In this document: positions 11,583-39,525 of the stretch, piece by piece
How positions within the stretch are numbered: the stretch's first letter is position 1
Layout of the letters: every line of letters begins with the position of its first letter
From: Ectocarpus siliculosus
Lineage: Eukaryota; Sar; Phaeophyceae; Ectocarpales; Ectocarpaceae
DNA length: 48,272 nt
Reading direction: 5' to 3'
NCBI GenBank assembly: GCA_000310025.1
Contig: FN648768.1
Coordinates: 1-48,272 of the forward strand
The notes under the pieces: generated by a model
Databases searched by the model: none
Told to the model about the DNA's origin: nothing
The model's input: the letters and a program-made list of their open reading frames with translations, nothing else
Translations under genes and position numbers: made by a program

Positions 11583-12414
11583 CGGTAGAGAGGATTACAT
11601 CACCGTCGCGGTACGAGGGAGGCAAGCGGGTGGCCGATAGAGAGCATCCGATATCCGAATATGCGAAACTAAGCCGACCGCCGAAAAGGTGCACACCCCT
11701 CTCATCCAACATTATCCTGTGCTTTTTCTGCGTGTGGTGCAGAGAGAACAAGTTGAACGAAATCCCTGGTACGACGTACACGTCTGTCAATTGGACACAG
11801 AAATCCGCTTCTCCCGATCGACCTCCTGCCATGTGAAATGCCAGATTGACACTACCTACGCACTCCACGCGCAAATAAGCACCATTGCCTACTTTGATGA
11901 ATTCTTTGCCGGGGGGAACAGGCGAGATGTTGTACATTTTAGAGCTGTTACTCACAAAATGGTTGCTTGCACCGCTATCAGACCAAAATACCTCCCTACC
12001 AGGACTGTACTCGCAACTCTGTGCAGACAAAGCAAAGCCAAGATCATCACCACATACGACACTGCTTACATCACTCGAAACCGAAAGCGAACTCATCTCG
12101 TCAGCGGACACAAAGTGTGCCATCAGGGAGTGGAGATGCCCAGGCGGATAGGTTGCTGCTCCGGGAGAAGGCGACTGGGGCGGGGCATGGGTGGAGTGCT
12201 GCTGCCGCTGCTGCTGCTGCGGCTGAAACGACGGCGGTGGCGGAGGCTGCGGTGGTGGCTGCTGCTGCTGGTAGTACGGTGTCGGAGGCGGGTAGTACGG
12301 CTGCTGCTGGTAGTAGTCTGGCGAAGGCTGCGGCTGCTGCTGCTGCTCCCACCCGCCATACTCGGTACCATTCGCCGGCCCCCCGTAGGGCATAGCACCA
12401 TACGCGTGCATCAC
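11510..12414 (-). CDS. Element C pol: Gln/Pro-rich linker and aspartic protease
   Basis: The frame continues the gag frame after the TGA at 12439. The N-terminal 80 residues are Gln/Pro/Tyr-rich. The retropepsin active site reads VFWSDSGASNHFVSNS, followed by FIKVGNGAYLRVECVG and the C-terminal VVPGISFNLFSLHH typical of copia proteases. The domain processes the polyprotein. After about 11513 the frame degenerates, while the other frame picks up the coding sense across a run of six C. Met at 12414 is probably not an independent start, because no promoter or leader is evident. Confidence 0.88.
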
Positions 12415-12438
12415 ATTAGCGTGCCCGTACGGAGGCCG

Positions 12439-13455
12439 TCAAGGCGGTTGTGGCGGACGAGGGGGCGCTGAATACCTGTGCTGATGCTGTCCTCCGTAGC
12501 CGCTGTGAGGTCCGTGCTGAGGCCCACCGCCCCAGCCCCCCCCACTGTAGCTCGGCTGCTGCGGCGGCGGTCCGTGAAGTTGCTGTTGCTGAGGCTGCTG
12601 TTGCTGAGGCTGCTGTTTCTGAGGCTGCTGTTGTTGTGCCTGCTGCTGCTCCTGCTCCTTTCGACGGTCGCGCTGAGTGTAGCACTGGGCGTTGGTGTGG
12701 AACAAGCGCGGATGTAGGTAGCAGTGGTCGTCGTCGGCTCCTCTCTCACCTCCGCCTTTCTTGTTTCCTCTCACCCTGCTCCTGCTCCGACTCCGGGCGC
12801 CTCCGTCTCCGTTCTGACCCCCGCCGTTTCCACTCGACCCAATTTGTACACGTCCATCGCCCCGGATGCCACCGGAAGCGACGAACGCGTGCCCCGCGCC
12901 ATTCTTCGGTTCCCCCTCCCGACGGCGAACCGAGTCCGCATGAGCATCTCGCACAGCCTTTTCAATTGTCTCGCGCGAGGGGGGAATCGGTGACATGGTC
13001 AGAATCTTCTTCTCTACCGTGTACTCGTCGGAAAGGTGGTATACCATGTGGGCATTGGCATCATCGTCGGAGAAAACAACACCGTGCGAGGCGAGCCTAC
13101 TGCGCAAAACAGCAAATCTCCCGAAGTACTCTTGCGGGGTCTCCCCTACTTTCATCTCAAGAGCGTGATATTGAGATGACAGCCTTTCTTTTTCGGCCCT
13201 GGCACGCGGCTCGTAATAATCGAGGAATATCTTCCAACCTCCGCTTGGGCTACCATCGGCGATGATCTGGGTTAGGATCGGCATGTATGTCACTGTCGTG
13301 ATCAGCAGGTTCCACGCCGTTATTGCCTTTTCTACCCTTCCATTCGAATGCACCCTACGCATCTCCTCCATGCTCATGCCTTCTTTTCCGACTGGAATCT
13401 TTTCGTCAGTCAGCACTACGTCACGCACTCCTTCCTGGGCAAACATAGCTACCAT
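12439..13455 (-). CDS. Element C Gag, main part
   Basis: 338 codons of a copia Gag. The helical capsid region (AITAWNLLITTV...YYEPRARAEKERLSSQYHAL) is followed by ETPQEYFGRFAVLRSRLASHG and ANAHMVYHLSDEY. Then come an Arg/Gly-rich stretch and a knuckle reading CYLHPRLFHTNAQC (CX2HX4HX4C, with His at the second position). A Gln-rich tail (Q2 to Q4 runs) leads to the stop. Gag forms the particle shell and binds genomic RNA. It ends in TGA followed by CGG at 12436-12441, and the frame stays open past it into protease, so readthrough could make Gag-Pol. Confidence 0.9.
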   Translation of the reverse strand: MVAMFAQEGVRDVVLTDEKIPVGKEGMSMEEMRRVHSNGRVEKAITAWNLLITTVTYMPILTQIIADGSPSGGWKIFLDYYEPRARAEKERLSSQYHALEMKVGETPQEYFGRFAVLRSRLASHGVVFSDDDANAHMVYHLSDEYTVEKKILTMSPIPPSRETIEKAVRDAHADSVRRREGEPKNGAGHAFVASGGIRGDGRVQIGSSGNGGGQNGDGGARSRSRSRVRGNKKGGGERGADDDHCYLHPRLFHTNAQCYTQRDRRKEQEQQQAQQQQPQKQQPQQQQPQQQQLHGPPPQQPSYSGGGWGGGPQHGPHSGYGGQHQHRYSAPPRPPQPP

Positions 13456-15188: not shown

Positions 15189-15890
15189 TTTTTCAAATCA
15201 AGTGCTCCATGATGCTCCATGGTGCTCCATGGTGCTCCATGGGAAGCGTGAGAATCATTTTTCAAATCAAGTCTCCATGGCGCTCCATGGTGCCCCATGG
15301 TGCTCCACGGGAAGCGTAGGAACATTGTGCAATTCAAGTCCTCCATGGTGCTCCATGGTGCTCCATGGTGTTCCATGGAAAGTGCAGAAAGCAAATTACA
15401 AATCAAGTGCTCCATGGTGCTCCATGGTGCTCCATGGAAAGCGTGAGAAACATTTTTCAAATCAAGTGCTCAGGAAAATGTGTGAAACATTTTACAAATC
15501 AAGTGCTCCATGGTGCTCCATGGTGCTCCATGGTGCTCCATGGTGCTCCATTGAAAGCGTGTGATACATTATACAAATCAAGTGCTCCATGGTGCTCCAT
15601 GGTGCTCCATGATGTCCCATGGGAAGCGTGACAAACATTTTTCACATCAAGTGCTCCATGGTGCTCCAAGGTGCTCCATGGTGCTCCATGGGAAGCGTGA
15701 GAAACGATATAAAATCAAATGCTCCATGGTTCTCCATGGTGCTCCATGGTGCTCCATGGAAAGACTGTCAAATATGTTACAAATCAAGTGCTCCATGGTT
15801 CTCCATGGGAAGCGTGTAAAACCTTCTACAAATTTTGTGCTCCATGGTGCTCCATGGAAAGAGTGTGAAACATGTTACAAATTAAGTGCT
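15186..15890. repeat. Two-level minisatellite, array 1
   Basis: About eleven units. Each unit is a variable number (about 2 to 5) of a 10-bp repeat GGTGCTCCAT followed by a linker of about 40 bp with the pattern GGAAGCGTG, GAAACAT and ACAAATCAAGT. One unit lacks most 10-bp copies (about 15465-15500). The array replaces the 5' end of B on one side and the 5' end of D on the other. Frames of over 100 codons on both strands here are a by-product of the repeats. Confidence 0.95.
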
Positions 15891-16511
15891 CCACGGGTCG
15901 CGCAGCCGCAGTCGCAGTCGTGCACCCAGGAAGAGCAAGCGTTCGCGTAGCCGTAAGCCCAGTCGCTCACCCAGCAGCCGCAGCAGCAGTCCGAGCAGTA
16001 GCATCCGCAGTAGCAGTAGCAGTGATGCAGAACCGGTTCCCTCGCGCTCCCGCCGCCGCTCCGACCGCCGTGCCCGCCAGCGCGCCCGTTCTTTAGCCCC
16101 AGACTCGCAGGACGCCCGCCCGTCCAACCACACCCGTTTCCAGAGCCTGGATCCGCAGGCTCTACGGGACGCCGGTTGGTCTTACACGGAAGCGCCTGCT
16201 ACTGGGGGGCTGCACGCGTCCAGTCATCCTGGACCTGGCCAGTACTACGCTGGGGGGGCGGACGCCGGAGTACTGCCCGCTCCTGCTGGGGAACCTCGGG
16301 GAGTCGACTCGCCCCACGATGGAGCCCGGCCGGCTGCTGCAGAAGAGCGTTCTTCATGGAGGGACTCGGCCCCGTCGGCGACAGGTAGACAGGGTTATGA
16401 TTCCAACCAGACGGCTAAGCTTGTAGATCGTGCGCGTAAGAGGATCGTAGGGAACAAGCCGTGTCCGGTGTATGCAGGCCCTTCCGTAGGCCCTCTCACA
16501 ATAGCCAACTC
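15891..16511 (+). CDS. Element D Gag, N-terminal part (5' truncated, split by F)
   Basis: No start codon remains: the frame enters from the minisatellite. The first 65 residues are strongly Arg/Ser-rich (SRSRSRAPRKSKRSRSR, then SSRSSSPSSS), unlike most Gag heads, and look like an RS domain or nucleic-acid-binding tail. A Pro/Gly/Ala-rich part and TAKLVDRARKRIVGNKPCPV follow. At 16511 the frame is interrupted by F. Removing F and one AACTC joins IANS to AVLLQDKVM without a break. Truncation at 15890 makes the copy unable to start normally. Confidence 0.8.
16507..16511. repeat. Target-site duplication of element F, left copy (AACTC)
   Basis: AACTC abuts the left LTR of F and recurs at 18541-18545. 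The pair defines F exactly. Confidence 0.92.
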
Positions 16512-20918: not shown

Positions 20919-23900
20919 CCACCGCGAGAGGCCAACCCGCCCCCCGATCCAAGCCCGGCCGTCGATCCCAGCCCGCGAGTTCGTGTAGAGGATGCCAACC
21001 TGGGGACGCTAGGGTCACTCAAGAAGCAGCAGCTGGTCAACGTGCTTGCTGCTTTCATCGAAGATGGCCTTTTTCCCATCGATCCGAAGCGTGTGCCTGC
21101 TTGCATGAACGGTGAGCTAGAGCTTCCTCTGATCAACGAGTTTTGCACTCCGTTCGCAGCCAAGCAACGACGTTTTTCTCCTGAAGAACGTCGTATGATT
21201 CGAGCCGAGATACAACAGTTAGTTGACCGGGGGGTGATACGGCAATCCATGTCCCCGTGGGCAGCCCAATGCTTGTGCGTGAAGAAGAAAGACGGTACCC
21301 TACGGCTGTGCATCGACTGGCGTGAGCTCAACAAACTCTTGGTTTCGGATAGCGGAGGTCTAGGCGACATGCAAACGATATTCGACGGTTTGAAAGGCAA
21401 AAAGTATTTCACGCAGCTAGATCTCGCCTCAGGTTTTCACCAGATGGAAATTGCCGAGAAGGACCGTTACAAAACGGCCTTTCGAGACGCTGATGGTATG
21501 CTTTGGGAGTTCACTCGCGCGGGTGTCGGATTGACGGTGCTGCCGGCGGCTTCCACGCGTAGAGTAAAGTCGGCCATGGGGCAACTGCCTGGTGTGTTTA
21601 GCTGGCTTGACGACATCCTCATCGCTAGTGATACGTGGGAAGAACACCTGGCCACCCTTACGCTCGTTCTGACACGCCTCTTAGCTGCGGGATTGTCAGT
21701 AAACTTCGCGAAATGCATCTTTGGCGCTGCGTCTCAGGAGTTTCTTGGCATGATCATTGACGGGACGGGTCTGTACCCTGCCCTGTCCAAGCTCGACGCG
21801 ATTGCCCACATGCCTCGCCCGTGTACGGTAGAGGGGTTGCGCACTTTTTTGGGTTTGACCGGCTACCTTCGGCAGTTTGTACCCAACTACAGTCTGACGG
21901 CGGCACCACTCACCAACATCTTGCGCAACAAAGCCTTCGCCTCGAAACGTGCTCGCAAGCTTGCTATCCCTTGGACCGCTGCAGAAGAAGACGCTTTTCG
22001 GTCGTTGCGAGCCACTTTGGCTTGCCCAACCGTGCTCGCCTTCCCCGACCTCGAGCGGCCCTTTGAGCTGCACACCGATGCTAGCACGCTAGGCGTAGGA
22101 GCTTCACTCATGCAGACGATCGACGGCGCGACAAGAGCAGTAGCATTTGCGAGTCACAGGTTTTCGCAGACGGACGCCAGAAGGGGCCCTACCGAGAGGG
22201 AGTGCATGGGCGTGTTGTGGGCGGTTGAACACTTTCGGCCGTACCTCGCGGGTAGGCAGTTCAAGCTGGTGACCGATTGTTCCGCACTGACGTGGCTTTT
22301 CCGAAGTAGAGAGCTCTGCCCCAAGTTGCACAGGTGGGCGCTTCGGCTCATGGAATACGACATGATGTTGGAGTGGAAAGCGGGAGTGGAGCACGTGGTG
22401 CCTGACGCTCTCTCTCGGCTACCTATCGCTGGTCCAGCCGTGGTGGACGTCGACGACTCTTTCCCGGATGACATGTCGTCGGCGGTTGCCGGCGCTGCAG
22501 TAGAGCCTCTTGGCCCAGAGCTGGATGGTGTAAGGTTGGCTGAACTAGACCCCGTACAGGCAGAACCAGCAGAGGACGCGGTTGTCCATGATCGTGCCTC
22601 ACATTCCGCCCTGGAGGCTGTTGACGCTAACCTTTCCGCCCTCCGAGTGTTGCCTTTTGCGACGTGCGCGGCGTTGGATGCTGAGTCAGGCGGCCCCCGT
22701 AGAAGCGGCCGATCCCGCACGCCGTCCGTACGTCTGCGGCCCATCGGCGACGTACAGTTGCCACCGGTCGGGGAGACGGGGCGTCTACCGAGCAGGATGG
22801 CGGCCGGCCCTACGCCAGTCGAGTCGGCAGACCCGGTGCCCCCGCTCCCGACGCTTCCACCGTTACCCGTCCAACCGGGCCATGACGACATCGGCGAAGT
22901 GCTTGCTGCACGGGGGGAGGTTCCGAGGTCGTCCTCAGGACCAGGCTGGAGTGGAACGGCAGTCATCGACTCGACTGCACAGGTGCTCACCAAGCCAGCC
23001 CTGCTGGCTCAACGGCAACGAGACGACACTCTCTTGGGTCAGGTTCGCAAGAGTTTGAATGAGAATGCGAACACTAGCCAGGGGGGAAGGGCGGATAAGC
23101 GGTACGACCTAGGTGAAGATGATGTTATCCGGTACGTGGATGGTAAGGGTAGGAAACTGCCCGCTATCCCCGACTCCATGGTAGCAGACATCATCGCTCT
23201 GGTACACACGCTGCATGGTCATGCAGGGACGGGAGCAACTTTGTCCTTACTGCGAGATCATTTCCACTGGCCCACGATGACGCGAGACACCCGACAGTAC
23301 GTGTTGTCGTGTAGTTGTCGTAGACGCAAGAGACCGCAGAGCAGACGGGTAGCCATGATGCCAGGTAGACCGCTCGAGCCGTGGGATGAGCTGCAAATGG
23401 ATATCCTCAAGATTGACACGCCGTCGCTGACCGGCAACAACTACGTTCTGCTCGTGGTAGACCGCGCCTCTAAGTTCCCTTTCGGTTTCCCGTTAGAGAC
23501 AAAGCAGGCAGTAGGCGTTGCGCGCGTCTTGATCGAGCTATGCCTGACCTTCGGTGTTCCAAAAACCATTCGCTGCGATGGGGGTTCAGAGTTCGAAGCG
23601 GAGGTAGTGAGGCATCTGTGTAGGTGGTTGCATGCAGACATCGTGTTTGGCCCTGCGGATCATCCACGAGGTCAGGGGTCTGTCGAGAGGCTGGGGGGAT
23701 GGCTCCAGGAGCTATTGGCGGAGCTGTGTAGGTCGTGGCCTGACAGGTGGGACGAGTATGTTTCACCGTCGATTTGGATCAAGCGTACACTGCCAGACAC
23801 TTCGCTCCCCTCCCACATGACCCCTTTCGAGCTGCTGTCCGGCCGCAAGCCCCGCACGACTTTGGACTCGTTAGTGCCTCTCACAGACGAGGTAGGACAG

Positions 23901-24767
23901 GAGCGAGGCCTTGACAATTTCGTGGAGCGACGCAAGCAGAATCTCCGCGAAGTACGGCTGGCACTCGAGAAGCGCCACGAGTTGCAGGTAGCGGCGCGGG
24001 CGAAAGCCAACGCGTCGATCGAGCGGTCATCCGCAGGAGTGGCGGTGGGACAGGACAGCTTAGTGCTGGTCCGCGAGACCGACAGTCGACGACACCGAGA
24101 TCGCAGAGGGAGGAAGCTGCAGCACGACTTGTACACAGGGCCCTGGAAAGTAACGGACGTGATACAACCGGGTCTTAGTGTAGGAGTCAGCATGCAGGGT
24201 AGAAAGAAGCGTAGCCGGAGAGTGTCTACCGCCGATGTTAAGCCTTTCCACCTTCGACCCCCCCCGCTCAGACATTCCATCGCCGACGAGTTCGCGACTT
24301 ACGCTTGGGGACCCGATTTCAAACTCCCTGCGGGGGCCGCCGAGATGTTCGGATTTGTCTCCATTGCGGACTGCCGTAGAACCCGATCAACCTCTGGCGC
24401 TCAGTTAGTTTGGGAGTATAAGGGGATGTCTGGAAATGGGGTGGTGTCGGACTGGGTGTCAGAAGAGGTCATGCTGCAGAGTTTCACGCCCCTTCAGTTG
24501 GATGGCTTCGTCGCACTGTGGCATCTGTACTACCCGCAACGCGCCACCGATCCTTTGCCTGTCTTACCCAAGTCCCGTGCCCCGCTGTCGCACGCCGAAG
24601 CTCTGAAGCTGTTTCCGATAGGTTGCACCTTCTGGAAGGAACTGGATGGAGGAATCAGGGTACAAGGCCAGGTGTACGACTATCTCCACCCTTACTGGCG
24701 TGTACGTTACAACGACCAGAACTGGGAAGAGCTCTCCCGCCGAGAGCTGGAGCGACTGGCGAAGTAG
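20919..24767 (+). CDS. Element D pol: reverse transcriptase, RNase H, integrase, chromodomain
   Basis: More than 1,240 codons with no stop. Reverse transcriptase: FSPEERRMIRAEIQQLVDRG, LRLCIDWRELNKL, FTQLDLASGFHQMEIAE and the active box FSWLDDILIAS (Trp where Tyr is usual). RNase H: FELHTDASTLGVGASL, ERECMGVLWAVEHFRPYL and VVPDALSRLP. Integrase: HTLHGHAGTG and CSC (HHCC zinc site, CXC here), then MDILKID, CDGGSEF and GSVERLGGW (Asp, Asp, Glu). A chromodomain-like segment (LVWEYKGMSGNGVVSDWVSE) and a final barrel-like piece (RVQGQVYDYLHPYWRVRYND, EELSRRELERL) close the protein at TAG 24765. Chromodomains steer integration to modified histones, which marks D as a chromovirus. Confidence 0.93.
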   Translation, partial: PPREANPPPDPSPAVDPSPRVRVEDANLGTLGSLKKQQLVNVLAAFIEDGLFPIDPKRVPACMNGELELPLINEFCTPFAAKQRRFSPEERRMIRAEIQQLVDRGVIRQSMSPWAAQCLCVKKKDGTLRLCIDWRELNKLLVSDSGGLGDMQTIFDGLKGKKYFTQLDLASGFHQMEIAEKDRYKTAFRDADGMLWEFTRAGVGLTVLPAASTRRVKSAMGQLPGVFSWLDDILIASDTWEEHLATLTLVLTRLLAAGLSVNFAKCIFGAASQEFLGMIIDGTGLYPALSKLDAIAHMPRPCTVEGLRTFLGLTGYLRQFVPNYSLTAAPLTNILRNKAFASKRARKLAIPWTAAEEDAFRSLRATLACPTVLAFPDLERPFELHTDASTLGVGASLMQTIDGATRAVAFASHRFSQTDARRGPTERECMGVLWAVEHFRPYLAGRQFKLVTDCSALTWLFRSRELCPKLHRWALRLMEYDMMLEWKAGVEHVVPDALSRLPIAGPAVVDVDDSFPDDMSSAVAGAAVEPLGPELDGVRLAELDPVQAEPAEDAVVHDRASHSALEAVDANLSALRVLPFATCAALDAESGGPRRSGRSRTPSVRLRPIGDVQLPPVGETGRLPSRMAAGPTPVESADPVPPLPTLPPLPVQPGHDDIGEVLAARGEVPRSSSGPGWSGTAVIDSTAQVLTKPALLAQRQRDDTLLGQVRKSLNENANTSQGGRADKRYDLGEDDVIRYVDGKGRKLPAIPDSMVADIIALVHTLHGHAGTGATLSLLRDHFHWPTMTRDTRQYVLSCSCRRRKRPQSRRVAMMPGRPLEPWDELQMDILKIDTPSLTGNNYVLLVVDRASKFPFGFPLETKQAVGVARVLIELCLTFGVPKTIRCDGGSEFEAEVVRHLCRWLHADIVFGPADHPRGQGSVERLGGWLQELLAELCRSWPDRWDEYVSPSIWIKRTLPDTSLPSHMTPFELLSGRKPRTTLDSLVPLTDEVGQERGLDNFVERRKQNLREVRLALEKRHELQVAARAKANASIERSSAGVAVGQDSLVLVRETDSRRHRDRRGRKLQHDLYTGPWKVTDVIQPGLSVGVSMQGRKKRSRRVSTADVKPFHLRPPPLRHSIADEFATYAWGPDFKLPAGAAEMFGFVSIADCRRTRSTSGAQLVWEYKGMSGNGVVSDWVSEEVMLQSFTPLQLDGFVALWHLYYPQRATDPLPVLPKSRAPLSHAEALKLFPIGCTFWKELDGGIRVQGQVYDYLHPYWRVRYNDQNWEELSRRELERLAK

Positions 24768-26344: not shown

Positions 26345-26583
26345 GTCTCTCCACTTGCTACACATTTTACAAATCAAGTGCTCCATCGTGCTCCATCGTG
26401 CTCCATGGGAAAAGTGTGAAACATAGTACAAATGAAGTGCTCCATCGTGCTCCATGGTGCTCCATGGTGCTCCATGGGAAGCGTGAGAAACACTTTTCAA
26501 ATCAAGTGCTCCATGGTGCTCCATGGTGCTCCATGGGAACGGTGTGAAACTTTTTACAAATCAAGTGCTCCATGGTGCTCCAT
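26345..26583. repeat. Two-level minisatellite, array 2 (left part)
   Basis: Same structure as array 1: CTCCATGGTG or CTCCATCGTG 10-mers followed by a GTGTGAAACAT, ACAAATCAAGT linker. About three and a half units are present before the array is interrupted by E, whose left target duplication CCAT is 26580-26583. Confidence 0.93.
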
Positions 26584-26849
26584 TGTTGTGGGATTACACG
26601 CGTAGCGATCCCTGTAGACCCTGATGAAGACTCACTTGTTTATTTATCTCTTGGAACAGCAGTGCTTGCTGTTGCTTTGCTCTCAAAGGTAGACTGAGCA
26701 CAGAGGGGGAGGACATGCTCCCTCTAAAAGGGGCCACAAAGGTCCTGTCCCCTGTTTCATCCTTCCATCGGGAGTTACATCTCCCGTACTTTAATCTGGG
26801 AATTACTCCGCAATACCGTTGGCACTGGCTACTTTCAAATCCCATAACA
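26584..26849 (-). repeat. Element E 3' LTR (266 bp)
   Basis: Starts TGTTGTGGGATTACACG and ends CAAATCCCATAACA on the + strand, near-perfect terminal inverted repeats (TGTTGTGGGATT against TGTTATGGGATT). It matches 38511-38776 in length. Confidence 0.95.
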
Positions 26850-27654: not shown

Positions 27655-28359
27655 CTAGGATAGAACACACACGTCACGCAGGTAGATCCCAAGACACACA
27701 CGCTTGCTAATCGGTGCGTGCCGGATCATTTGACGGCGAATGCGCCGCCTCCACGTTTCGCGACATGTCGACATTGCGAAGAAGTCCTTTAATGAGGGCG
27801 CTACCGCTGTGAACTTGAAGTCACCACGAGACGGCCGATCCGAGGGTAGAGCAACGAACAACGGAGAGGGCGATCTTGACCGGTCCGGGGTCGTCGAGCA
27901 AGCGTACGATGTAGCGGTCGGCCCGTTCAGTCGGTCCAGAAATCTTGCCCAGCCACCAGAGTTCATCTTGAGCCTTGTACCAGAAGAACGCACCCACAGG
28001 TAGAGGAGTATCGGCGAAACGACGGTCCCAGGTTGAGCGGGAGACAAAGGAGTAACCCGGAGGCAAATCCTCTTGCCCTTAGCACGTGCCAATTCGCGTG
28101 CGGCTGCGCCAATACGCATTGCACGGTAACGGCGATTCGTCCGACGGTGTTGATCGGGCGTACCCGTCCAATACCGGAGAATCTGCGATCGAGAGTGCTG
28201 AAGGTCCATCTCACGCTCCCAAGAAGGGCGGAGAAGACCCTTCCAATGTGTCTGATACAGAACAGCGATAACACCACCACGACCGCGAACAGACTGGTGA
28301 CCAGTAATTTGTTCCACCTCGAGGCGTTCGACCAGTCGAGACGTCATTTTCCGTAACAT
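27655..28359 (-). pseudogene. Element E: chromodomain and small barrel at the pol C-terminus
   Basis: The 28359 frame has RLVERLEVEQITGHQSVRG, then VLYQTHWKGLLRPSWERE and RSQILRYW. This is the chromodomain pattern (aromatic residues, WKG, SWE, YW) found after integrase in chromoviruses. A second frame (28066 down to about 27821) continues with LPVGAFFWYKAQDELWWLGK and RYIVRLLDDPGPVKIAL, which resembles a Tudor/Agenet-type barrel. A frameshift near 28070 separates the two. A similar final piece occurs in D. Confidence 0.72.
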
Positions 28360-28381: not shown

Positions 28382-29218
28382 TTAGTTGTTTAAAACATAC
28401 TGCGTGAGACCAGTCGGCAGAAACCGTGGCAGGTCCTCAGCGTCATGCGGATTAGCGCATGGCTTGCAGCGTGCGACCGAAACACGACGTTTCGAGCCTT
28501 TGCCCGGCAGGTCCGACGGAAGATCCAAGTATAACAACTTGGCCGCGAGAGGACTGCCATCAGGGGCTTTCGAACAGGGGCCTACAGCCAACACTTTAAA
28601 CGGACCGGTCCAAAGCAATGATAACTTCGCCTTGAGAACCTTGTCGTCGGTGCCTGATCGAACACCGGAGCGAATGGTAGATTCGGTATTATAGATCCAA
28701 ACCCAATCGCCGATGGTGTAAGTCGGAAGCTTGTGCAAAGCAACCGAGAGAGCGGAATTTCGACGCTCGATCCGAGAAATGGATAACTTGTGCTGCTCGC
28801 GTACTAGCTCGTAAGCACGACGTTGGCGATCAGCCGCGAGGTCGCAATATTGGAGATGGTCGCGATCCAAACTTTGATTACCACGAGCATAAGGATGCTC
28901 GATGACAGTCATCGGAAGGCGAGGCAAACGGTTGATATGCACCTCATTAGGTGCTAAACCGGTGGCCGCGCTAACAGAGTTATTATACGCAAACTCTACA
29001 TGAGGGAGATGGACATCCCAATCATCTTGCCGTTCGTTAACGACCATGGCAAGCATTTGTGCCATAGTATGGTTAACTCGCTCGACACCACCATTTCCAT
29101 TAGGATGGTACGAACTGGTGGCCACTTGCGAACTGCGAGACGTTTGTAAACGGCTTGTGACAGTACCGAGCAAAATTGTGTGCCATTGTCTGATAAAAGA
29201 CTCAAGGGGCAACCCCAC
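28382..29218 (-). pseudogene. Element E: integrase C-terminal half
   Basis: The third catalytic residue lies in NGNGGVERVNHTMAQMLAMV (Glu). WDVHLPHVEFAYNNSVSAAT and LAPNEVHINRLPRLPMTVI then follow the gypsy integrase pattern. A later GDWVWIYN and LLWTGPFKVLAVGP give the SH3-like GPY/F module, which is specific to gypsy elements. The frame ends in TAA at 28382 before the chromodomain, which sits in another frame. The upstream half of the core is in the 30627 frame. Confidence 0.88.
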
Positions 29219-30627
29219 AAAGGGATATACCGATTCACGAAAATATCTGCAGTACCTTCAGCGGTAAACTCAGCAGCCGTAACAGCGTACATGTCAGCAC
29301 GCCGACTAAACCGGACGGTGAAGAGCAGAATGTAAGTGTTACCCCTAGGGGTAGTCGGCAGTGGTCCGAAATAATCGACACTCACGGACACTCCAGGTCC
29401 GGACGGCAGTGGCAAGCTTAAAATGGGCCACCGGGCCGTTTGTCGGGAAGTTTTACGAGCTTGGCACTTGAGGCAATGACGAATCCACCGTTTGGTACAG
29501 ACGCTCATGCCTACCCACCGGTAGAAACGCTCTAACATAGACAACGTACGAGCTGCGCCAAGATGACAAGACGCATTAGCGTGACAGACCTGCATGATCC
29601 ATGGGCGCATCAACATGGGGACGTAAACCCTAATTGGTTGGTCGTTGAGGAGACGTGCCGCACGCCCGCCATGGCGCGTGGAAGTGACAAAAGTGGTTGT
29701 GGTGGGCTCCTTAACGAGAAGCACTACGTCATCGTCGTCAACGTGCAACCGGCCTTTATGTGCTAGTTCTCGGATGTCCGAAAACGAAGGTCGACGGTGT
29801 GACGGAAGATGGTCAAGAAAACCAGGCGGTAATTCGGGAGGTTGACCTAGAAGGTTGTAGCGTATGGCGGCATCGCACACGGGTTCACCGCGTTGTTCTC
29901 GCGCCCAATCAGAATGGGAAAAACGTTCAACCGATTCGCGGAAATCGAGCTCCACGCCCGAAAGCACTGCGGTATCAACAGGCGGCGGAACACGCACCGA
30001 ACCAAGCAATGGTCCAGACGCGGGCGTCGGCGGTGTCGGATCTGAGCGAACGGCCATCTCCGGAATTGGACTCAGTGGCGCCGAAACGGCGGAATCCACC
30101 GGCCGGGAAGCCGAAGATTGATGAACGCGAGGCGCACGAGCTACAGACTGAGGGACAGTCGGCTCGAGAAGCGAGTCCTCCGGCTGGGAAAAGCCATAGT
30201 CCACAGCCGGGCGCGGAGCACCGGCGACAGCAGCAGCTCGCCGACGGGTCCGTGTCGAAATTAGATCGGTAGGATCCAGGGCGCGCCTGGATGAAGCACC
30301 AGGGCGTGTAGCGGGCGTTTCTGCACCCTGTACAGAAAAAACACCAGCAGCAGTCGAAACTGCAGAACGATCCGAGGCGACCAAGAGAGGGCGGTTGCGA
30401 GCGGTTGTAGAGCCCGAAGCACCGATAACAGTCGGGGTTAACCCTCGAACCGACCAGACGCCCGAGGAAACTCCGGAATGAGCGACAGTAGCGCGCGGTC
30501 CGTGCTCGCGAAAATCAGCAAAATCAGCTGAAGAAGGCGGTAGCCCACCCAAGACTGAACTCGGGGCGGACGGGACGAGCCCACCCAAGTCAACACTGGC
30601 CGATGGCCGGAAGGCACAAATCCACAA
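29140..30627 (-). pseudogene. Element E: integrase N-terminal half with long linker
   Basis: A Ser/Pro/Arg-rich linker of about 280 residues comes first. Then the zinc site QVCHANASCHLGAART...HCLKCQARK, and the core with VSVSVDYFGPLPTTP (first Asp) and LLSDNGTQFCS (second Asp). The coding sense is lost after YKRLAVRK near 29140 and resumes in another frame at 28382-29218, so the catalytic core is split by a frameshift. Confidence 0.87.
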
Positions 30628-30629
30628 GA

Positions 30630-31241
30630 GCGGATAAAATAAACCGCTTCATCTTCAGCCGACGGAGTTAAACGACTGCGGCCAGAACGGTCACGCTCGG
30701 TAGCTTCTATCGGTAATCGAGAAAGGAAGTCAGCATTGCCGTTAGACGAACCCTCGCGATACTCAAGAGTGTAGGAGTATGCCGTGAGGAACTCCAACCA
30801 ACGTTGAACGCGAGCGTTGTTTTCCACCACCTTTGCAAGGTGTTCAAGGGACTTGTGATCCGTGAAAATCTTGAAGTGGGTGCCCCATAGGTAACCGCGA
30901 AGGCGCTTGATGCACCAAATGATACTGCCAGCTTCAAGATCCAGAGGAGTCCAATGACGCTCAGACTCCAAAGTAGCTCGGCTAACGAAAACGATAGGCC
31001 GAATAGAGCCATCAGGTTGTTCTTGTTCCAAAGTTCCACCAAACCCATCTTTACTCGCGTCACAGTAGAGGCCAAAAGGGCGCGAACCGTCGGATACAGC
31101 ATCCCAACCTGGATACACCAGAACTGGAGGGCTCGCCAGTTCTTCGAGAAGTTGGCGAACGACGGATTCCATTGAACCGGTGAAGTCAAACTTCACATTC
31201 TTCTGAAGAAGAGTCGTGAGAGGGCGAATACGCTTAGCCAT
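30630..31241 (-). pseudogene. Element E: RNase H
   Basis: RNase H of the gypsy type: FGLYCDASKDGFGGTLEQ (first acidic residue), RHWTPLDLEAGSIIWCIKRL, FKIFTDHKSLEHLA and NGNADFLSRLPIEA. The true continuation upstream (YYRKFLPQMAKRI) joins the reverse transcriptase through a one-base shift near 31240. The downstream shift near 30620 leads to the integrase linker. Confidence 0.9.
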
Positions 31242-31242: not shown

Positions 31243-32400
31243 TGTGGAAGAAACTTCCGGTAATATAGCCCAAACCACCCAGCAAAGCTCGAAGCTGCTT
31301 GGTGTCTTTGGGCATCGGCATCTTGGTGAGAGCAACAACGTTTTCACCATTGGGCCGAACTCCGTCCGGAGATATAGTGTGCCCAAGAAACTCGGCTTCC
31401 GTGGCGACAATATTGGCTTTCGGAGGAGTCAGTTTCAAATTGTGCTCGCGCAATCTTTCGAAAAGAGAGCGAATGGTCGCTACATGAGCGGCCGGGGTCT
31501 CACCAAAGACAATGAGGTCGTCCAGATACGACGCAACAACTCGAAGATTTTTGATTACTTCGTTGACGACCTTACAGAACCATCCGGGAGCAGCGGCACT
31601 GCCCTGAGGCATTTTCAACCACTTAAACAGCCCAGAAGACGTAACAAACGCCGTGAGAGGGATGGTATCACGATGAACCGTGATCTGATGGAACGAAGAT
31701 TTCATGTCAAAGAGAGAATAAATCTTTCCCTTCAACAATTTGTCCAGAGTATCTTCAACTCTAGGAATCGGAAGCTGACTAAGAGCACATAGTTTATTCA
31801 ACTTACGATAGTTTACGGTGATGCGAACACCACCGGATTTCTTGGGTGAAACAACCACAGGACTCGAGTACGGTGACGTCGAGTGATGTATAAGACCCGC
31901 AGCAAGATATTGGTCGAGAATAGCGTCCACTTGCTTCGAAACCGGAGGACTAACTCGGTATGGACGAGATGTAACGGGCTCACTGCCGGGGGGAACGGTC
32001 AACTTGAACGGGAACAATGAACAAGAGCCGAAATCCGTAGGCGAACTGGAAAACACGTCGTGATATTCACATAGCACCTTACCCAATTCGGTAATAACGT
32101 CCGGTGTCCAACCAGGACCATGTAAATTAAACGTGATTTCTCGCAAGTGACGAGGGAGCTTATCCCACACACGAGAGAAACTGGCACGTTGATCTGGTGC
32201 TAAACGCGCCAAAAGAGCCGGGGAAGGCGAAAGAGGAGTCGAATCAGAAGGATCCGAACCAGGCGCCGGATGCGGCTGTTTGGCGGTCCGTTCATGCAAA
32301 CCATACACAAACGAATGAGCCATCGGTGACACTGTCGAATCGGAGCCATCGTAGTTAAAAACGGGGCCAGGGTCCGTATGGTCAGATTGCGAGACCAGCT
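31243..32400 (-). pseudogene. Element E: reverse transcriptase
   Basis: VDAILDQYLAAGLIHHSTSP, VRITVNYRKLNKL, IYSLFDMKSSFHQITVHRD, FKWLKMPQGSAAAPGWF and the intact active box VVASYLDDLIVFG, then LKLTPPKANIVATEAEFLGH. It copies the element RNA. The frame is joined to the protease by a shift near 32400 and to RNase H by one near 31240. Unlike C and D, it keeps Tyr in YLDD. Confidence 0.92.
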
Positions 32401-32921: not shown

Positions 32922-34985
32922 TCACCGAAGAAACTGCACGCTCAAACGGATCATGGTCGAGGTTTGAAGGGGGGCGGACTCACCAAACCCTCCCCAACAA
33001 CGAGGCTGGGTGCGTGTTTCAAACAACGACGAAGCTGCACCCGCGGCGTTCATGGACTCCCAAGTTCGAGAACTAACGAAAGTCTGGGGCGAACCGGTGT
33101 CCAGCAACGCCACGCATCCAAATTGCGTAGAAGCCGAGCCACAATGGGTGAGGATTCGTGCAGTGAAAGAGTCATCGTCAGCGGTGATTACGCCGCCGAC
33201 TAAACTAGGACCTTGCTCAGGAAGCAAAGGCGACTGAGGACCAGGGTGGTCAGTTTCCCGAGACACAGCCCAAACGCTGTTCTCATGATCGGACGAGACA
33301 CTAGTGGCGTATTGCGAAAAGGACGCAAAACGCTCCGAAGACGACGGCACAAGTGCCGTCGACAGCCGTTGATGCGTGGAAGGATTAACTTCGAACACGG
33401 TACAACGATCTGGGCTGGGCGTTTCACCCGAAGCCGCTAAGCGAGAACTACGTTCTGGCTGTGGGGCGTTTGATCGTAAAAGTTGGCGAACGTTCTGTAA
33501 ACCTACACCCAACAAATTTAGACCACGCCAACGAGACGGACGACAAGCGTCCGGATGATCTGCACGAAGACCGATTCCCCAAATGCAGTCATAAGGACTG
33601 GCTTCTGCTAAAAGTTTGTCTCCGGATCCAAGGAGGTGTAGTCTCATCTCTGGATTTTGGGAAAATTTAGCGTAAGAGCCGGTGAGCACGACATTTTCGC
33701 GCTCCTTCTCCCAGAGAGTTTGGTCGAAACCCTGGACCGCACGACCATACTTCTTGTGTAGATCGGGGTCGGAAACTCTCATGATTTTCTGTAGACATTC
33801 GCGGTCGCCGAAAAGACGAGCTTTCTCTGCAGCAAAAAATTGCTCTGCACACACATACGAAGTACCATCAACGACAAAAGTAGACGGGGTCCATTGACAG
33901 AAGGGAGGAGGGGATTTCCAAAATAGGACCACGTCTGAATTGGAGTACTCCTGAGTAGCATCGAAACCATCGTTTTCCGAGGACGGACGATGACTAGAAG
34001 TACGAGCAGGATGTGTGTCAACTGCTAAATGACCTGAAGTGGGAGACGCCTGGGCATCATTATGGTCAACATCTTCTGCAGATGGGCCGGTGCCAGGGGT
34101 ACGGGCAAAGGAATTTACATGCATTGCTAAATTGCCTAAATCAGGGGGTGGGTCCATCGGAGAATTCGAATTCACTGCCGAATTCGCCGAGATAAACGGG
34201 GGCGCCACGCTTCGTATAGGGCTGTCCGTTTCTAGATCTTTTACCGTACCCGCATCCGATCCGGACCAGGGGGCATATAGATCGCTTTCGCTAGGAGCGT
34301 CCACCAGTGCTTTGTCTGTCAATACAACTTTGGACGGTGCAAGGTGCTCCTGACCGGTCCTCCGTGACAAGGATCGCGAGCATACCGTATTTCCGGCGGG
34401 CGTCTCTGAAGCGTCCTCTGGAGACGGTGCTGTCAACACTCTCAACGTCGATCGCGGGATGTTCCTGGTTTGCACCTCTGCACGATCGTTCTCGTTGGCA
34501 ATTGGTGGGGTCTGCTTAGCCCCACCGGGCGAGAATCGTCGGTCGGAATCTGACGAAACCGCTACCGGTGCTGCGGCGGCTGGCGGACCAACGGCGGCAG
34601 CGAGCGCAGACGAATCACACGTATCAAAAGACGCATCAGAATTGACCACTTCTGACGAATCCTCCTCAATCATATAAAGCGCGTTGCTCTTGCCGGTCTT
34701 ACCTGCAGACGCCGGGGGGAGCTGCCGAACTACACTCGGTGGCCCCGCGCGTCTGGTCGCTCTGTTCCCGCACTTCAAGACGGCACTCGCCTCGGGGGAG
34801 TCATTTCCCGAAAAAGTACCCATCGAAAGAGGCGAAGTAGCAGAGGTCGCAAGCGAAATGTCGGAGGGTGAAAGGGGAACGGCATCGTCTTGTGCATTCC
34901 CAACCCTCTTGTCCGAATACGGAGAAGAAACAGCGGGTGCAAGGGCACCAGCGTTTCGCAGGGCAGGAGCACCTCGCTCCACCAT
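32922..34985 (-). CDS. Element E Gag-Pol segment: NADAR-like domain followed by aspartic protease
   Basis: 687 uninterrupted codons, the longest intact frame of E. Residues 1-350 are Ser/Thr/Pro/Ala-rich and probably unstructured. Residues about 352-504 match the NADAR/YbiA fold signature (listed separately). Residues 505-615 are another linker. Residues 624-640 hold the retropepsin active site CVALLDTGSPQTFVSS. Because domain and protease share one frame, the domain is part of the element polyprotein and not a separate insertion. The Met at 34985 is probably not the natural start, since the zinc-knuckle segment leads into this region through frameshifts near 35000-35230. Confidence 0.85.
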   Translation of the reverse strand: MVERGAPALRNAGALAPAVSSPYSDKRVGNAQDDAVPLSPSDISLATSATSPLSMGTFSGNDSPEASAVLKCGNRATRRAGPPSVVRQLPPASAGKTGKSNALYMIEEDSSEVVNSDASFDTCDSSALAAAVGPPAAAAPVAVSSDSDRRFSPGGAKQTPPIANENDRAEVQTRNIPRSTLRVLTAPSPEDASETPAGNTVCSRSLSRRTGQEHLAPSKVVLTDKALVDAPSESDLYAPWSGSDAGTVKDLETDSPIRSVAPPFISANSAVNSNSPMDPPPDLGNLAMHVNSFARTPGTGPSAEDVDHNDAQASPTSGHLAVDTHPARTSSHRPSSENDGFDATQEYSNSDVVLFWKSPPPFCQWTPSTFVVDGTSYVCAEQFFAAEKARLFGDRECLQKIMRVSDPDLHKKYGRAVQGFDQTLWEKERENVVLTGSYAKFSQNPEMRLHLLGSGDKLLAEASPYDCIWGIGLRADHPDACRPSRWRGLNLLGVGLQNVRQLLRSNAPQPERSSRLAASGETPSPDRCTVFEVNPSTHQRLSTALVPSSSERFASFSQYATSVSSDHENSVWAVSRETDHPGPQSPLLPEQGPSLVGGVITADDDSFTARILTHCGSASTQFGCVALLDTGSPQTFVSSRTWESMNAAGAASSLFETRTQPRCWGGFGESAPLQTSTMIRLSVQFLR
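33474..33932 (-). other. NADAR (YbiA/DUF1768-like) domain within element E
   Basis: Residues about 352-504 of the 687-codon frame. Family landmarks in order: DVVLFWKS start; VDGTSYVCAEQFFAAEKARL, with the conserved AEQ and Lys; KKYGRAVQGF (Gly-Arg); LWEKERENVV; YAKFSQNPEMRLHLL (KF); EASPYDCIWGIGL (Glu-Ala-Ser, Asp, WGIG); and RWRGLNLLGVGLQNVRQLL (W-G-N-LLG-VR). YbiA-type proteins cleave N-glycosidic bonds of riboflavin intermediates, and bacterial NADAR partners of DarT toxins remove ADP-ribose from nucleic acid. The visible conserved residues suggest that the domain was catalytic when the element was active. Assignment is by motif recognition only. Confidence 0.85.
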
Positions 34986-35229: not shown

Positions 35230-35875
35230 TGTGATGGGTGTTGTCTGTGGACGGCTGTCGCGAGTTATGAGCAAAATTCCATTATTGCGACCATCGTTCT
35301 GGGAGATACCGTTGTTACGGTAGTCGCCTGCGTGATTTCTACGCGAAGACGAAGAGTGACGCTTGTTACGCCCGCCACCAGCACCTGATCCGGTGTGTGG
35401 CTTGCGACGGTAAGACCTGATACGGCCTTGCCAACGTCGGAAAGCGTCAGAGTTGTCGTGCAGCTCACCTAGTTCTGGGTTCAACAGACCGCTAGAATTT
35501 GTGAAAGGAGCTGGGCAATGTTTCATGGAATGGTCATCACCAGAGCAGTGCAAACAACGGTTACGGTTCTCTCGAAACGCTTGCGAGCGAGCGTCCTGAG
35601 TCAAGAGAGGAGTCCACAAAAAAGGATCACCGGTGTTACGGAAAGAGGAACTGACTTGGTACACATTCGACCAATCGCCCTGTGTGGCGGGCCATGCACT
35701 ATAATCACGGGAAAACGGATCATCACCGCCGCCCTGAGACTGAACAGCCAAAACAACAGGATTTTGTGCAGAACCTTGTGCCCACCGGCCCGAAGGCGCA
35801 GGTTCAGTTGCACGGTTCTGGGAACGCCGGGGCTGCGAAGAACCAGGCGTGGAAGATAAGAAAAATACTCTGAAC
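35230..35875 (-). pseudogene. Element E Gag: nucleocapsid with zinc knuckle
   Basis: The frame has RCLHCSGDDHSMKHCPAPF, a canonical CX2CX4HX4C Gag knuckle. An Arg/Ser/Gly/Asn-rich tail follows (RRKPHTGSGAGGGRNKRHSS) that would bind RNA. It lies in a different frame from the capsid upstream (shift near 35875) and from the NADAR frame downstream. Confidence 0.82.
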
Positions 35876-35878: not shown

Positions 35879-37043
35879 CTATGGCGGGGGGTTGTTGGTG
35901 GCCAAAGGCCCGAACGCCTGCCACATTGCATCAATCGGGTCAAACGGTGTCACGGCCGTAGCCAGGTCACCAGGGTACAGCATCGGAGCCAAAGACGGAA
36001 ACTGTGTACTTACAAAATTCCTGACAATCTCAAGCACCGTCGACACGCTAGGAGCCAAAACACGCTCAGATCCGGTCACAGAAGAAACCAAAAGGCGGAA
36101 CGCCCTAAGGTAATCCACAAACAAGGTTCCATTCGAAACACCAAATTGCTGAAGTCGCAAAAACGACTCCTGTCGATCTCCGACATCGAATTGCTCCGAT
36201 AGCAGCCGCAGAAGGAGCGTGAAGGCCTCCGGACCCGTGGCTCCTTCATCCAGCCTCCGCTTCACTTGCTGAAAATAATCAGAAATGGAGAGGACAAGGT
36301 CGGATGTAGTAGGTTTGTCAGGTGAGATCGCACTCAAAATTCTCTTTTGAAGAGGGCGCTCCCAACCTCGGACAAAATCGGAGTCCATCAAACCGACGCT
36401 ACGATCATCACACAGCATCAAAATATCCGTGAGCGCAGATCGAACGGTGCGAATGAGCTGCTGGTATGCATCAGCTGGCAGCAAAGACGCAGGGAAAGGC
36501 ATAGCGGATACACGTTCAACATTTTTAAGGTTGAGGGTTATGTACTCACGATGGACACGAGCAACATGTGCGGCATCAACTGCCGAAGAAGCAGCAGCAA
36601 CCGTTGCATGGCGAGCGTGAGCAGTGGTGGAAGAAAGCGGTAAAGCACTATCATCGGTGGGCACACCCGCTATGGCAAGAGGCTCTTCAACAGCAACACC
36701 ACTGGGTTCGGTCTTAATAGACGGTTTTGTGTCTGCAACATCAACACCACGGAAGTCTGTCAACTTGGCAGACTTGTCACTACGCAACACAGTGCTCGAA
36801 AACACAAGATGACCATCACGCAGAAGAGCGTTAAGACGATCATCAGAAGCAACATCCACGAGAGACGGTGCTACTTGCCTGGAAGACCGGCCCGAAGAAG
36901 CCTTTCGAGTAAGACTACGCTCCGAGGCGGAGTCCGAGGATGCTCCTCCAGCTGTGTCCGAAGACGGGCGGGAGGTGCGGTTCTTCTTGTGCGCTCCTTT
37001 CTTGCCCGCGCGCTCCGAAGAGCTGGACGCCGAAGAAGATGGC
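35879..37043 (-). CDS. Element E Gag: capsid region
   Basis: The frame is open from a TAG at about 37045 and includes ATG 36859. After a basic Ser/Lys-rich head (SERAGKKGAHKKNRTSR) it has a long helical capsid: VDAAHVARVHREYITLNLKN, ADAYQQLIRTVRSALTDILM, SDLVLSISDYFQQVKRRLDE, EAFTLLLRLLSEQFDVGDRQ and FLRLQQFGVSNGTLFVDYLRAF. The last two blocks follow the retrotransposon Gag helical pattern. It builds the particle core. It ends NNPPP at 35879, just before the knuckle resumes in another frame. Confidence 0.78.
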
Positions 37044-38510: not shown

Positions 38511-38776
38511 TGTTGTGGGATTACACGCGTAGCGATCCCTGTAGACCCTGATGAAGACTCACTTGTTTATTAATCTCTTGAAACAGCAGTGCTTGCTGTT
38601 GCTTTGCTGTCAAAGGTAGACTGAGCACAGAGGGGGAGGACATGCTCCTTCTAAAGGGGGCCACAAAGGTCCTGTCCCCTGTTTTATCCTTCCATCGGGA
38701 GTTACATCTCCCGCACTTTCCTCTGGGAATTACTCCGCAATACCGTTGGCACTGGCTACTTTCAAATCCCATAGCA
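38511..38776 (-). repeat. Element E 5' LTR (266 bp)
   Basis: Partner of 26584-26849 with 10 differences seen (about 4 per cent), so this insertion is older than C or F. Confidence 0.95.
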
Positions 38777-38821
38777 CCATGGTGCTCCATGGAAAGCGTG
38801 TGGAACATTTTTCAAATCAAG
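38777..38821. repeat. Two-level minisatellite, array 2 (right remnant)
   Basis: CCAT (target duplication of E), then GGTGCTCCATGGAAAGCGTG and a TTTTTCAAATCAAGTG linker. Joined to 26583 it restores an ordinary unit of the array. Confidence 0.9.
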
Positions 38822-38829: not shown

Positions 38830-39233
38830 CCCACATTATCGTGTAAATGGATTCACAGTTATAACAGTGAAAGTCACTGTTATAACAGTAAATTTCACGG
38901 TTATATTAGTGAACTGTCACTCTTACAACGGTGAGGAGATCTCTTATGAAAGTGAGGAGCACTCCTATAACAGCAGCGATAGACACTTTCATAAGAATGA
39001 CGTCACTTTTATATAAGTGATAGTCACTTTTACAAAAGTGATATTGACTGTTATACGTCACTTTCTCCCACAATGAAAGCAAAAGCCACACACACTTTCA
39101 CAGACACTCCTACAACAGTCAAATCACTATTACGAGAGAGAGAGAGTCATTTCACGGTATGAAAGTGAATGATTCTTTTACGAAAGTGACGCGCGCGTCA
39201 CTTTCATAAAAGTGCAGAACTAGTCCACGATAC
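38830..39233. repeat. Cluster of short palindromes (CACTTT...AAAGTG family)
   Basis: Many short inverted repeats on the theme GTCACTTTTA-TAAAAGTGAC, for example GTCACTTTTACAAAAGTGAT at about 39022, with related GTTATAACAGTGAAAGTCAC at about 38860. A GAGAGAGAGAG run sits at about 39136. No coding sense. It begins about 10 bp after the second minisatellite ends. Confidence 0.85.
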
Positions 39234-39525
39234 TATCACGTGCGTGACTTTCGTCACTTTTACGAAAGTGAAGACAAGTGCCGAACGATTTCTTCACTTT
39301 CAATAAAGTGTATGATCAGCGCACGGTACATATCATGTGCGTGACTTTCGTCACTCTTACGAAAGTGAAGACAAGTGACGAACGATTTCGTCACTTTCAT
39401 TAAAGTGCATGATCTGTGCACCGTACATATCACGTGCGTGACTTTCGCCACCTTCACGCAAGTGACGTCATATGAACATAGGGTTGACTGCGCGTCCTTT
39501 GATGAAAGTTTTGCTTGTATGCTGA
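39234..39525. repeat. 97-bp tandem repeat, three copies
   Basis: TATCACGTGCGTGACTTTCG begins at 39234, 39331 (TATCATG variant) and 39428, spaced exactly 97 bp. Each copy contains two palindromic pairs of the TCACTTT...AAAGTGA kind and CGAACGATTTC. The third copy decays after about 39470. Confidence 0.88.

What the first reader, a model, noticed from the sequence alone, without database searches (positions are those of the whole stretch)
33474..33932. A NADAR/YbiA-like enzyme domain built into the polyprotein of an LTR retrotransposon
Seen: within the longest intact frame of element E, between the Gag zinc knuckle and the retropepsin, about 150 residues carry the ordered landmarks of the NADAR family (AEQFFAAEKA, YGRAVQGF, YAKFSQNP, EASPYDCIWGIGL, RWRGLNLLGVGLQNVR). 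Known: YbiA-type enzymes break N-glycosidic bonds in riboflavin intermediates, and NADAR proteins paired with DarT toxins remove ADP-ribose from nucleic acid. Inference: the element may have carried this domain to undo host ADP-ribosylation of its RNA or cDNA, or to act on NAD-derived signals. No usual gypsy domain set includes it, and it shares a frame with the protease, so it is part of the element.
Basis: partly seen in the sequence, partly recalled or inferred. Interest (0 to 1): 0.88.

Follow-up and report, generated by a model that had tools for sequence, protein, structure and literature searches.

The report
NADAR enzyme inside brown-algal gypsy retrotransposons
A family of jumping genes in what is probably a brown-algal genome carries a bacterial-type enzyme domain that related proteins use to strip ADP-ribose from DNA; the fusion has already been reported in Ectocarpus, but its job is untested, and here it looks like a working, selected enzyme.

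Summary
Window 33474-33923 (-) encodes a full NADAR domain (Pfam E 1.4e-42) in one frame with a retropepsin motif, inside a broken 12.2-kb Ty3/gypsy element with 266-bp LTRs. All 150 scored NADAR places of this genome (of 230 candidates) pass the cut-off, and 125 of 150 scored relatives of its reverse transcriptase have one upstream, against 0 of the 62 best relatives of the window's other gypsy RT. One copy holds NADAR, protease motif, RT, RNase H and integrase in one open frame. E43, E125, D130 and W133 of the ADP-ribose pocket are kept in 49 of 49 other copies aligned, K50 in 48. Between two families NADAR amino acids change 1.9-4.5 times more slowly than the flanking linkers. In 14 of 30 copies, from five families, Pol follows Gag in frame after one UGA-C stop. 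The element NADARs group together, suggesting one capture, donor unresolved. The fusion was published in 2025 for Ectocarpus sp. 7 (PMC12477816). Removal of ADP-ribose from element RNA or cDNA is the leading reading, untested.

The parts
26584..26849 (-). 3' LTR (266 bp), partner of 38511-38776
   Evidence: 267 columns compared incl. one shared flanking base, 257 identical, K2P 0.0385
38511..38776 (-). 5' LTR (266 bp)
26580..26583 (.). target-site duplication CCAT (left)
   Evidence: CCAT on both outer edges; the element interrupts a GTGCTCCATGG satellite
38777..38780 (.). target-site duplication CCAT (right)
35882..37042 (-). Gag region (open stretch of 387 codons); similar by eye to the Gag frame of copy L032
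   Evidence: no Pfam hit (326-aa frame 35879-36859; L032 Gag)
35515..35556 (-). Gag zinc knuckle CX2CX4HX4C (CLHCSGDDHSMKHC), in another frame than NADAR in this copy
   Evidence: read by eye; like motif in L032
33474..33923 (-). NADAR (YbiA-type) domain, residues 355-504 of the 687-aa frame
   Evidence: PF08719 E 1.4e-42; 150.3 bits; PDB 8bau/2b3w; pocket residues
33090..33110 (-). retropepsin active-site motif ALLDTGS, same frame as NADAR
   Evidence: sequence; spacing in other copies 110-120 residues; no Pfam protease hit in the window
31373..31846 (-). reverse transcriptase (RVT_1)
   Evidence: E 1.3e-27
30777..31085 (-). RNase H (RT_RNaseH)
   Evidence: E 1.1e-31
29131..29622 (-). integrase (H2C2 zinc-binding domain; rve core below its cut-off)
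   Evidence: E 4.1e-11; rve 1.3e-4, 22.6 bits vs 32.6
28168..28320 (-). putative chromodomain (below Pfam cut-off)
   Evidence: E 0.01, 16.2 bits vs 25.1; E 0.0049 in L032

Best explanation
The window holds a degraded copy of a Ty3/gypsy retrotransposon lineage whose Pol polyprotein begins with a captured bacterial-type YbiA/NADAR domain, followed by protease, RT, RNase H, integrase and a weak chromodomain. Shown here by sequence: presence, fixed position, many copies, constraint, and a complete set of catalytic and most ADP-ribose-binding residues. Suggested: one capture. Inferred: Gag and Pol are one frame interrupted by a leaky UGA-C stop, so NADAR is made at the low dose of Pol and packed with RT in the particle; there it works as an N-glycosidase that removes ADP-ribose from guanine bases in the element's RNA or newly made cDNA, so that a host or stress-derived modification does not block reverse transcription.
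For: Domain identity. NADAR upstream of 125 of 150 scored RT relatives, 112 of the 125 at 1341-1455 nt; 133 of 150 when remnants found later are added; 0 of the 62 best relatives of the control RT. One open 2552-aa frame (L032) with NADAR, protease motif, RVT_1, RNase H, integrase and weak chromo in order. NADAR dN 0.174 against 0.114 (protease stretch), 0.072 (RT) and 0.33 and 0.79 (the two flanking linkers), dS 1.4 or more in each region. E43, E125, D130, W133 in 49 of 49 and K50 in 48 of 49 other copies (P. nicotianae numbering). UGA-C, in frame, between Gag and Pol in 14 of 30 copies examined, 5 families; in one family the first Met of the Pol frame is at codon 353-380. Guanine-ADP-ribose hydrolysis by the oomycete NADAR (PMC11543638 passages) and by all NADAR/YbiA proteins that the Toxins paper assayed (PMC11125620 passages). 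NADAR embedded with the polymerase in RNA-virus polyproteins (PMC9503650 passages).
Against: No activity, expression or particle data. DarT profile 0 matches; PARP profile only four short matches just over the cut-off, so no host enzyme that ADP-ribosylates nucleic acid is identified; these searches ignore introns. A conserved pocket would serve other ADP-ribose or glycosidic substrates too. The D86 contact of 8bau is not kept. No significant RNA folding after the UGA in five families (z +0.14 to -1.34). Two RT places (L149, L152) keep the protease region without a detectable NADAR. In the careful tree one other eukaryotic row falls inside the element group.
Confidence: 0.45

Rival explanations
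1. Same element and same active domain, but the substrate is small: soluble ADP-ribose derivatives, RNA-end processing products or NAD-based alarm signals, not ADP-ribosylated nucleic acid.
For: The 2022 survey posits that viral NADARs might prefer soluble ADP-ribose derivatives or by-products of RNA processing, while elsewhere favouring macromolecular targets for eukaryotic RNA viruses (PMC9503650 passages); the Ectocarpus paper suggests RNA processing; a NADAR protein is needed for nematode trans-splicing (PMC9303266 passages).
Against: The biochemical passages seen report guanine-ADP-ribose hydrolysis by the NADARs assayed. The PTS_2-RNA profile (RNA-repair partner) has 0 matches in this genome, introns not considered.
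Confidence: 0.25
2. A housekeeping N-glycosidase, the way some retroviruses carry a dUTPase: it removes damaged or reactive nucleotides or riboflavin-type intermediates.
For: E. coli YbiA cleaves N-glycosidic bonds of riboflavin intermediates (stated in PMC11543638, passages). The dUTPase comparison is from recall.
Against: No riboflavin link seen in the element; the nearest solved relative binds ADP-ribose.
Confidence: 0.12
3. The domain is kept only as a binding or structural module of Pol; catalysis is not used.
For: No activity data exist.
Against: Catalytic as well as most binding residues are kept in 47-49 of 49 other copies, across families whose silent sites are saturated.
Confidence: 0.08
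4. Chance: a host or bacterial NADAR gene inside or beside a dead element, not part of it.
For: The window copy alone is broken in several frames.
Against: Same place beside 125 of 150 scored RTs, several in open frames of 2000-2580 aa, with narrow spacing to protease motif and RT.
Confidence: 0.01

Closest known systems
NADAR-bearing Gypsy lineage of Ectocarpus sp. 7 (e.g. Gypsy-12_Ec32), Genome Biol 2025;26:320, PMC12477816
   Different: Their consensus sequences were not held, so direct identity was not tested. The window's assembly (189.5 Mb, 492 contigs) is not their 200.2-Mb assembly. The passages I saw give no pocket residues, selection test, Gag-UGA-Pol frame or NADAR tree; their supplements were not seen.
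Phytophthora nicotianae NADAR (PDB 8bau)
   Same: Profile match E 1.1e-36; E43, K50, K75, R79, W89, R93, E125, D130, W133 shared with the window
   Different: 189-residue chain, not part of a polyprotein; its Y84 is F and its D86 is Q in the window
Escherichia coli YbiA (PDB 2b3w)
   Same: Profile match E 3.1e-20; E43, K50, E125, D130, W133 positions shared
   Different: Stand-alone; has A where the window and 47 of 49 other copies have the K75 lysine
Bacterial YbiA/NADAR proteins (Nannocystis P0029, Myxococcota P0032, Planctomycetota P0027)
   Same: Among the closest named bacterial proteins, 54-58% identity; in the sister group of the element clade in the 98-row quick tree
   Different: Stand-alone genes; the 61-row careful tree puts other rows nearest, with weak support (70/84)
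NADAR in polyproteins of RNA viruses (nidoviruses, hepe-like, picorna-like)
   Same: NADAR embedded in the polyprotein that holds the polymerase (PMC9503650 passages)
   Different: RNA viruses, not reverse-transcribing elements; not compared by sequence here
Tx1 LINEs of Crassostrea gigas with NADAR in ORF1
   Same: A retrotransposon with a NADAR domain (reported in PMC12477816)
   Different: Non-LTR element. An oyster NADAR protein (P0184, Crassostrea angulata) falls outside the element group in both trees, but I did not check that it is a LINE.

Membership tests
NADAR superfamily (PF08719) | Full-length profile match above curated cut-off | tested here: met
   146.2 bits vs 35.1, profile 2-163 of 163
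NADAR superfamily (PF08719) | Catalytic/phosphate-binding residues E43, K50, E125 of 8bau | tested here: met
   All three in the window; 49, 48 and 49 of 49 other copies aligned
NADAR superfamily (PF08719) | YbiA fold in three dimensions | not tested
   Structure tool busy, job interrupted, then switched off; only profile matches to solved structures
NADAR superfamily (PF08719) | Hydrolysis of guanine-ADP-ribose or another glycosidic substrate | not testable with these tools
   needs protein
YbiA subfamily (as against BC4488 and phage gp30.3) | Glutamate (not Asp or His) at the E125 position | tested here: met
   E in window and 49 of 49 other copies; rule from PMC11125620 passages
Ty3/gypsy LTR retrotransposon | LTRs TG...CA with short target duplication | tested here: met
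   266-bp LTRs, CCAT both sides
Ty3/gypsy LTR retrotransposon | Pol order protease - RT - RNase H - integrase | tested here: met
   window pieces and one open frame in L032; protease by motif only (Pfam E 0.13 in L032, below cut-off)
Gypsy-12_Ec32 lineage (PMC12477816) | NADAR at N-terminal region of Pol plus C-terminal chromodomain | tested here: met
   chromodomain below Pfam cut-off
Gypsy-12_Ec32 lineage (PMC12477816) | Falls with Gypsy-12_Ec32 in an RT tree | not tested
   published consensus not held; seven Ectocarpus sp. CCAP 1310/34 proteins with NADAR were returned, five were put in the NADAR trees and lie within the element group
DarT-NADAR toxin-antitoxin | A DarT gene | tested here: not met
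   DarT profile: 0 matches in the genome, six frames without introns; 1 of 14 control genomes rings

The most novel reading that the evidence does not exclude
A retrotransposon lineage captured a bacterial ADP-ribose eraser and has kept it, catalytically complete and apparently packed with its reverse transcriptase via UGA readthrough, because brown algae restrict or damage retroelements by ADP-ribosylating RNA or cDNA: an undiscovered nucleic-acid ADP-ribosylation defence in brown algae, revealed by the counter-defence.
Probability: 0.25. Interest if true: 0.85.

Novelty: already known. Interest (0 to 1): 0.45.

Why it matters
The fusion itself is in print (Ectocarpus, 2025), with its role called unclear. 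What these results add is reason to think that the domain is a working enzyme under selection rather than a passenger: complete catalytic set, slow amino-acid change, a fixed place in Pol. That makes a simple question testable: does a retroelement carry its own ADP-ribose eraser, and against what modification? If so, nucleic-acid ADP-ribosylation would be an arm of anti-transposon control in brown algae.

Tried and rejected
Chance hit or neighbouring gene: rejected by copy number, spacing and open frames. NADAR common to all gypsy elements: not supported, 0 of 62 control RT places at 66 bits or more have one upstream, and of all 78 control places outside the NADAR-lineage list 1 has; both counts go by the 150 scored NADAR places, so a missed NADAR is possible. 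Intact relatives without NADAR: of the 25 RT places first scored as lacking it, 20 were fetched with 2.5 kb upstream; 6 hold a NADAR remnant and 14 none. By the best protease-query match alone, 9 of the 14 begin past the active-site motif, 3 have no match, and 2 (L149, L152) keep that region, so loss of NADAR alone is possible there. Two of the 25 have NADAR fragments (C63, C486); three were not examined. Positive selection: dN stays far below dS, none claimed. RNA structure behind the UGA: not significant. Host DarT and PTS_2-RNA profiles: no match. Naming the host by its contig number: 0 papers. The viral-contig scan kept 80 of 486 relatives, 39-48% identical; their surroundings were not read. 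Structure prediction could not be obtained.

Full report
What was checked. The reported frame 34985-32922 on the minus strand is real, 687 residues long. Its residues 355-504, window 33474-33923, match the Pfam NADAR profile nearly end to end with E 1.4e-42. The only PDB chains found by sequence at E up to 0.01 are two NADAR/YbiA structures; with an alignment of 54 relatives as profile the E-values are 1.1e-36 (8bau) and 3.1e-20 (2b3w). The retropepsin motif ALLDTGS follows in the same frame.

The element. Two direct repeats of 266 bp, 26584-26849 and 38511-38776, begin TG and end CA; 257 of 267 compared columns (one shared flanking base included) agree, Kimura distance 0.0385. Both outer edges read CCAT, and the element interrupts a GTGCTCCATGG satellite (array 26362-26583; continuation on the right read). 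Between them, on the minus strand, lie a Gag region with a zinc knuckle, NADAR, retropepsin motif, RT, RNase H, integrase and a weak chromodomain. This copy is broken: the parts lie in several frames, and the zinc knuckle is in another frame than NADAR, which corrects a detail of the finding.

Not a one-off. The genome that holds the window (189.5 Mb, 492 contigs) gave 230 NADAR candidates, of which 150 were scored and all 150 passed the curated cut-off. With the window's RT as query 150 of 428 candidates were scored; 125 of these 150 have one of the scored NADARs 461-2487 nt upstream on the same strand, 112 of them at 1341-1455 nt. Of the other 25, 20 were fetched and 6 hold a NADAR remnant; two more have fragments listed, giving 133 of 150; 14 show none and 3 were not examined. 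The window's other gypsy element (RT at 21279-21761) served as control: of its 62 best places (66 bits or more) 0 have a scored NADAR upstream; the NADAR lineage appears only lower in that list. NADAR is thus a mark of one group of gypsy RTs, with the limit that counts go by capped lists.

Intact architecture. The copy L032 (contig C23) has one open frame of 2552 residues. Scanned in pieces it gives NADAR (residues 416-566, E 5.6e-46), a sub-threshold aspartic protease (E 0.13; motif seen), RVT_1 (4.3e-26), RNase H (2.1e-31), integrase (5.9e-13 and 4.3e-9) and chromo (0.03, below cut-off). Of 32 own loci (31 distinct copies) that reach 500 nt or more past NADAR, 28 show a retropepsin motif 110-120 residues downstream; of 84 database proteins returned for residues 340-687, 39 show NADAR followed by the motif after 114-153 residues. 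Named database hits include Ectocarpus sp. CCAP 1310/34 (seven proteins), Pylaiella littoralis and Scytosiphon promiscuus (one each), all brown algae; that the last two lie in elements was not shown. The Ectocarpus protein P0003 matches it at best at 79% over 180 residues, and at 84% over 151 in other copies, so a related brown alga is my inference.

Gag and Pol. Of 30 distinct copies with about 1.47 kb or more held upstream of NADAR, 14, belonging to five families, run open up to a single UGA followed by C, 846-1305 nt before the domain piece, above which the same frame is open again with Gag-like sequence; the other 16 meet an earlier stop or frame break. In the family of L032 the first methionine of the Pol frame is at codon 353-380 after the stop; in the other four families Met codons come earlier (codon 13-220). 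Leaky UGA-C readthrough is the plain reading (that UGA-C is a leaky context is recalled, not from a call). Predicted RNA folding after the stop was not significant in five families.

Is it a working enzyme? The contacts and catalytic residues defined on the P. nicotianae enzyme (PMC11543638, section 12 read) were mapped onto 49 other copies (of the 149 other scored places): E43 49, K50 48, K75 47, R79 47, W89 47, R93 47, E125 49, D130 49, W133 49 of 49; Y84 is F in 47; D86 is not kept (1 of 49). Two copies (L042, L043) read out of frame in the middle of the domain and should account for most exceptions. E125 as glutamate puts the domain in the YbiA subfamily by the rule given in PMC11125620 (passages). 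Between the window's close relative L031 and L032, dS is 1.4 or more in each region (saturated in RT) while dN is 0.174 for NADAR, 0.114 for the protease stretch, 0.072 for RT, 0.33 and 0.79 for the two flanking linkers. Among 47 copies (L025 as duplicate and L042, L043, L049 left out) six clusters emerge; between their first members dS could not be computed for saturation in 13 of 15 pairs and the two measurable ratios are 0.09 and 0.11; within clusters pN/pS is 0.16-0.69. The window copy differs from L031 by too few changes to say anything. The estimates are simple counts (Nei-Gojobori), not a likelihood test.

Origin. In a 98-row quick tree the 38 element and brown-algal NADARs lie on one side of a branch (SH-aLRT 87), next to a group with Nannocystis, Myxococcota, Planctomycetota and other bacterial proteins. 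In a careful 61-row tree the group has 90/87 but also takes in one long-branch eukaryote (P0091), the group is undivided in only 4% of 200 bootstrap trees, and its nearest neighbours are other rows (a eukaryotic transcript, two unnamed proteins, an oyster protein, two viral contigs) with weak support 70/84. One capture is suggested, not proven; the donor is open.

Function. Committed reading: NADAR is made at Pol dose, packed with RT, and removes ADP-ribose from guanine in element RNA or cDNA. Shown: domain, place, constraint, catalytic residues. Inferred: readthrough, packaging, substrate, benefit. A host enzyme that would make the modification was not found: DarT 0 matches, four short PARP matches (E 4.5e-6 to 4.3e-4), PTS_2-RNA 0, all without regard to introns. 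Rivals are soluble ADP-ribose derivatives or RNA-end processing, a nucleotide housekeeping role, and a non-catalytic role.

What is known. PMC12477816 (Genome Biol 2025;26:320; passages and section 5 part 1 seen) states that the families of one of four gypsy lineages in Ectocarpus sp. [quoted passage not shown] Searches for NADAR with retrotransposon, with gypsy/transposable element/YbiA, and with reverse transcriptase showed no other paper on NADAR in LTR elements among the titles and abstracts listed (20 of 104, 10 of 21, 6 of 6; the library holds open-licence papers only). I therefore file the finding as already known in kind, with added evidence on constraint, catalytic residues, expression frame and origin that I did not see in the passages read.

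Noticed in passing
window 27824-28078 (-) and L032:194-1000 (-): After the chromodomain, Pol carries a further stretch of about 60 residues that is alike in the window and L032 (...GAFFWYK...WWLGKI...LDDPGPVK...) without a Pfam hit in L032; by eye it resembles a Tudor-type reader.
   Followed up: partly
L032:7934-7936 (-) and the same junction in L030, L003, L004, L007, L013, L018, L012, L029, L014, L022, L023, L019, L024: Gag and Pol are one frame separated by a single UGA followed by C in five families; possible stop-codon readthrough.
   Followed up: partly
window 5539-13455 (-): A Copia-type element (gag_2, Pol_BBD, rve, RVT_2 and SH3 domains).
   Followed up: no
window 21042-24767 (+): A second gypsy element with a 1241-aa open frame (RT, RNase H, integrase; no NADAR hit in that frame); used as control.
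   Followed up: partly
window 15189-15893 and 26362-26583, continuing after 38777: Satellite of GTGCTCCATGG-rich 49-69-bp units; the element is inserted into it.
   Followed up: no
window 38860-39465: Dense CACTTT...AAAGTG-type repeats, with a 97-bp tandem unit at 39196-39465.
   Followed up: no
P0149 and P0160 (Ectocarpus sp. CCAP 1310/34) against L032 and L030: In P0149 residues 634-921 are 98% identical to L032 while the NADAR part is 85% (L030); P0160 is 94% in residues 274-599 and 85% in 100-283. Recombination between families or faster change of NADAR is possible.
   Followed up: no
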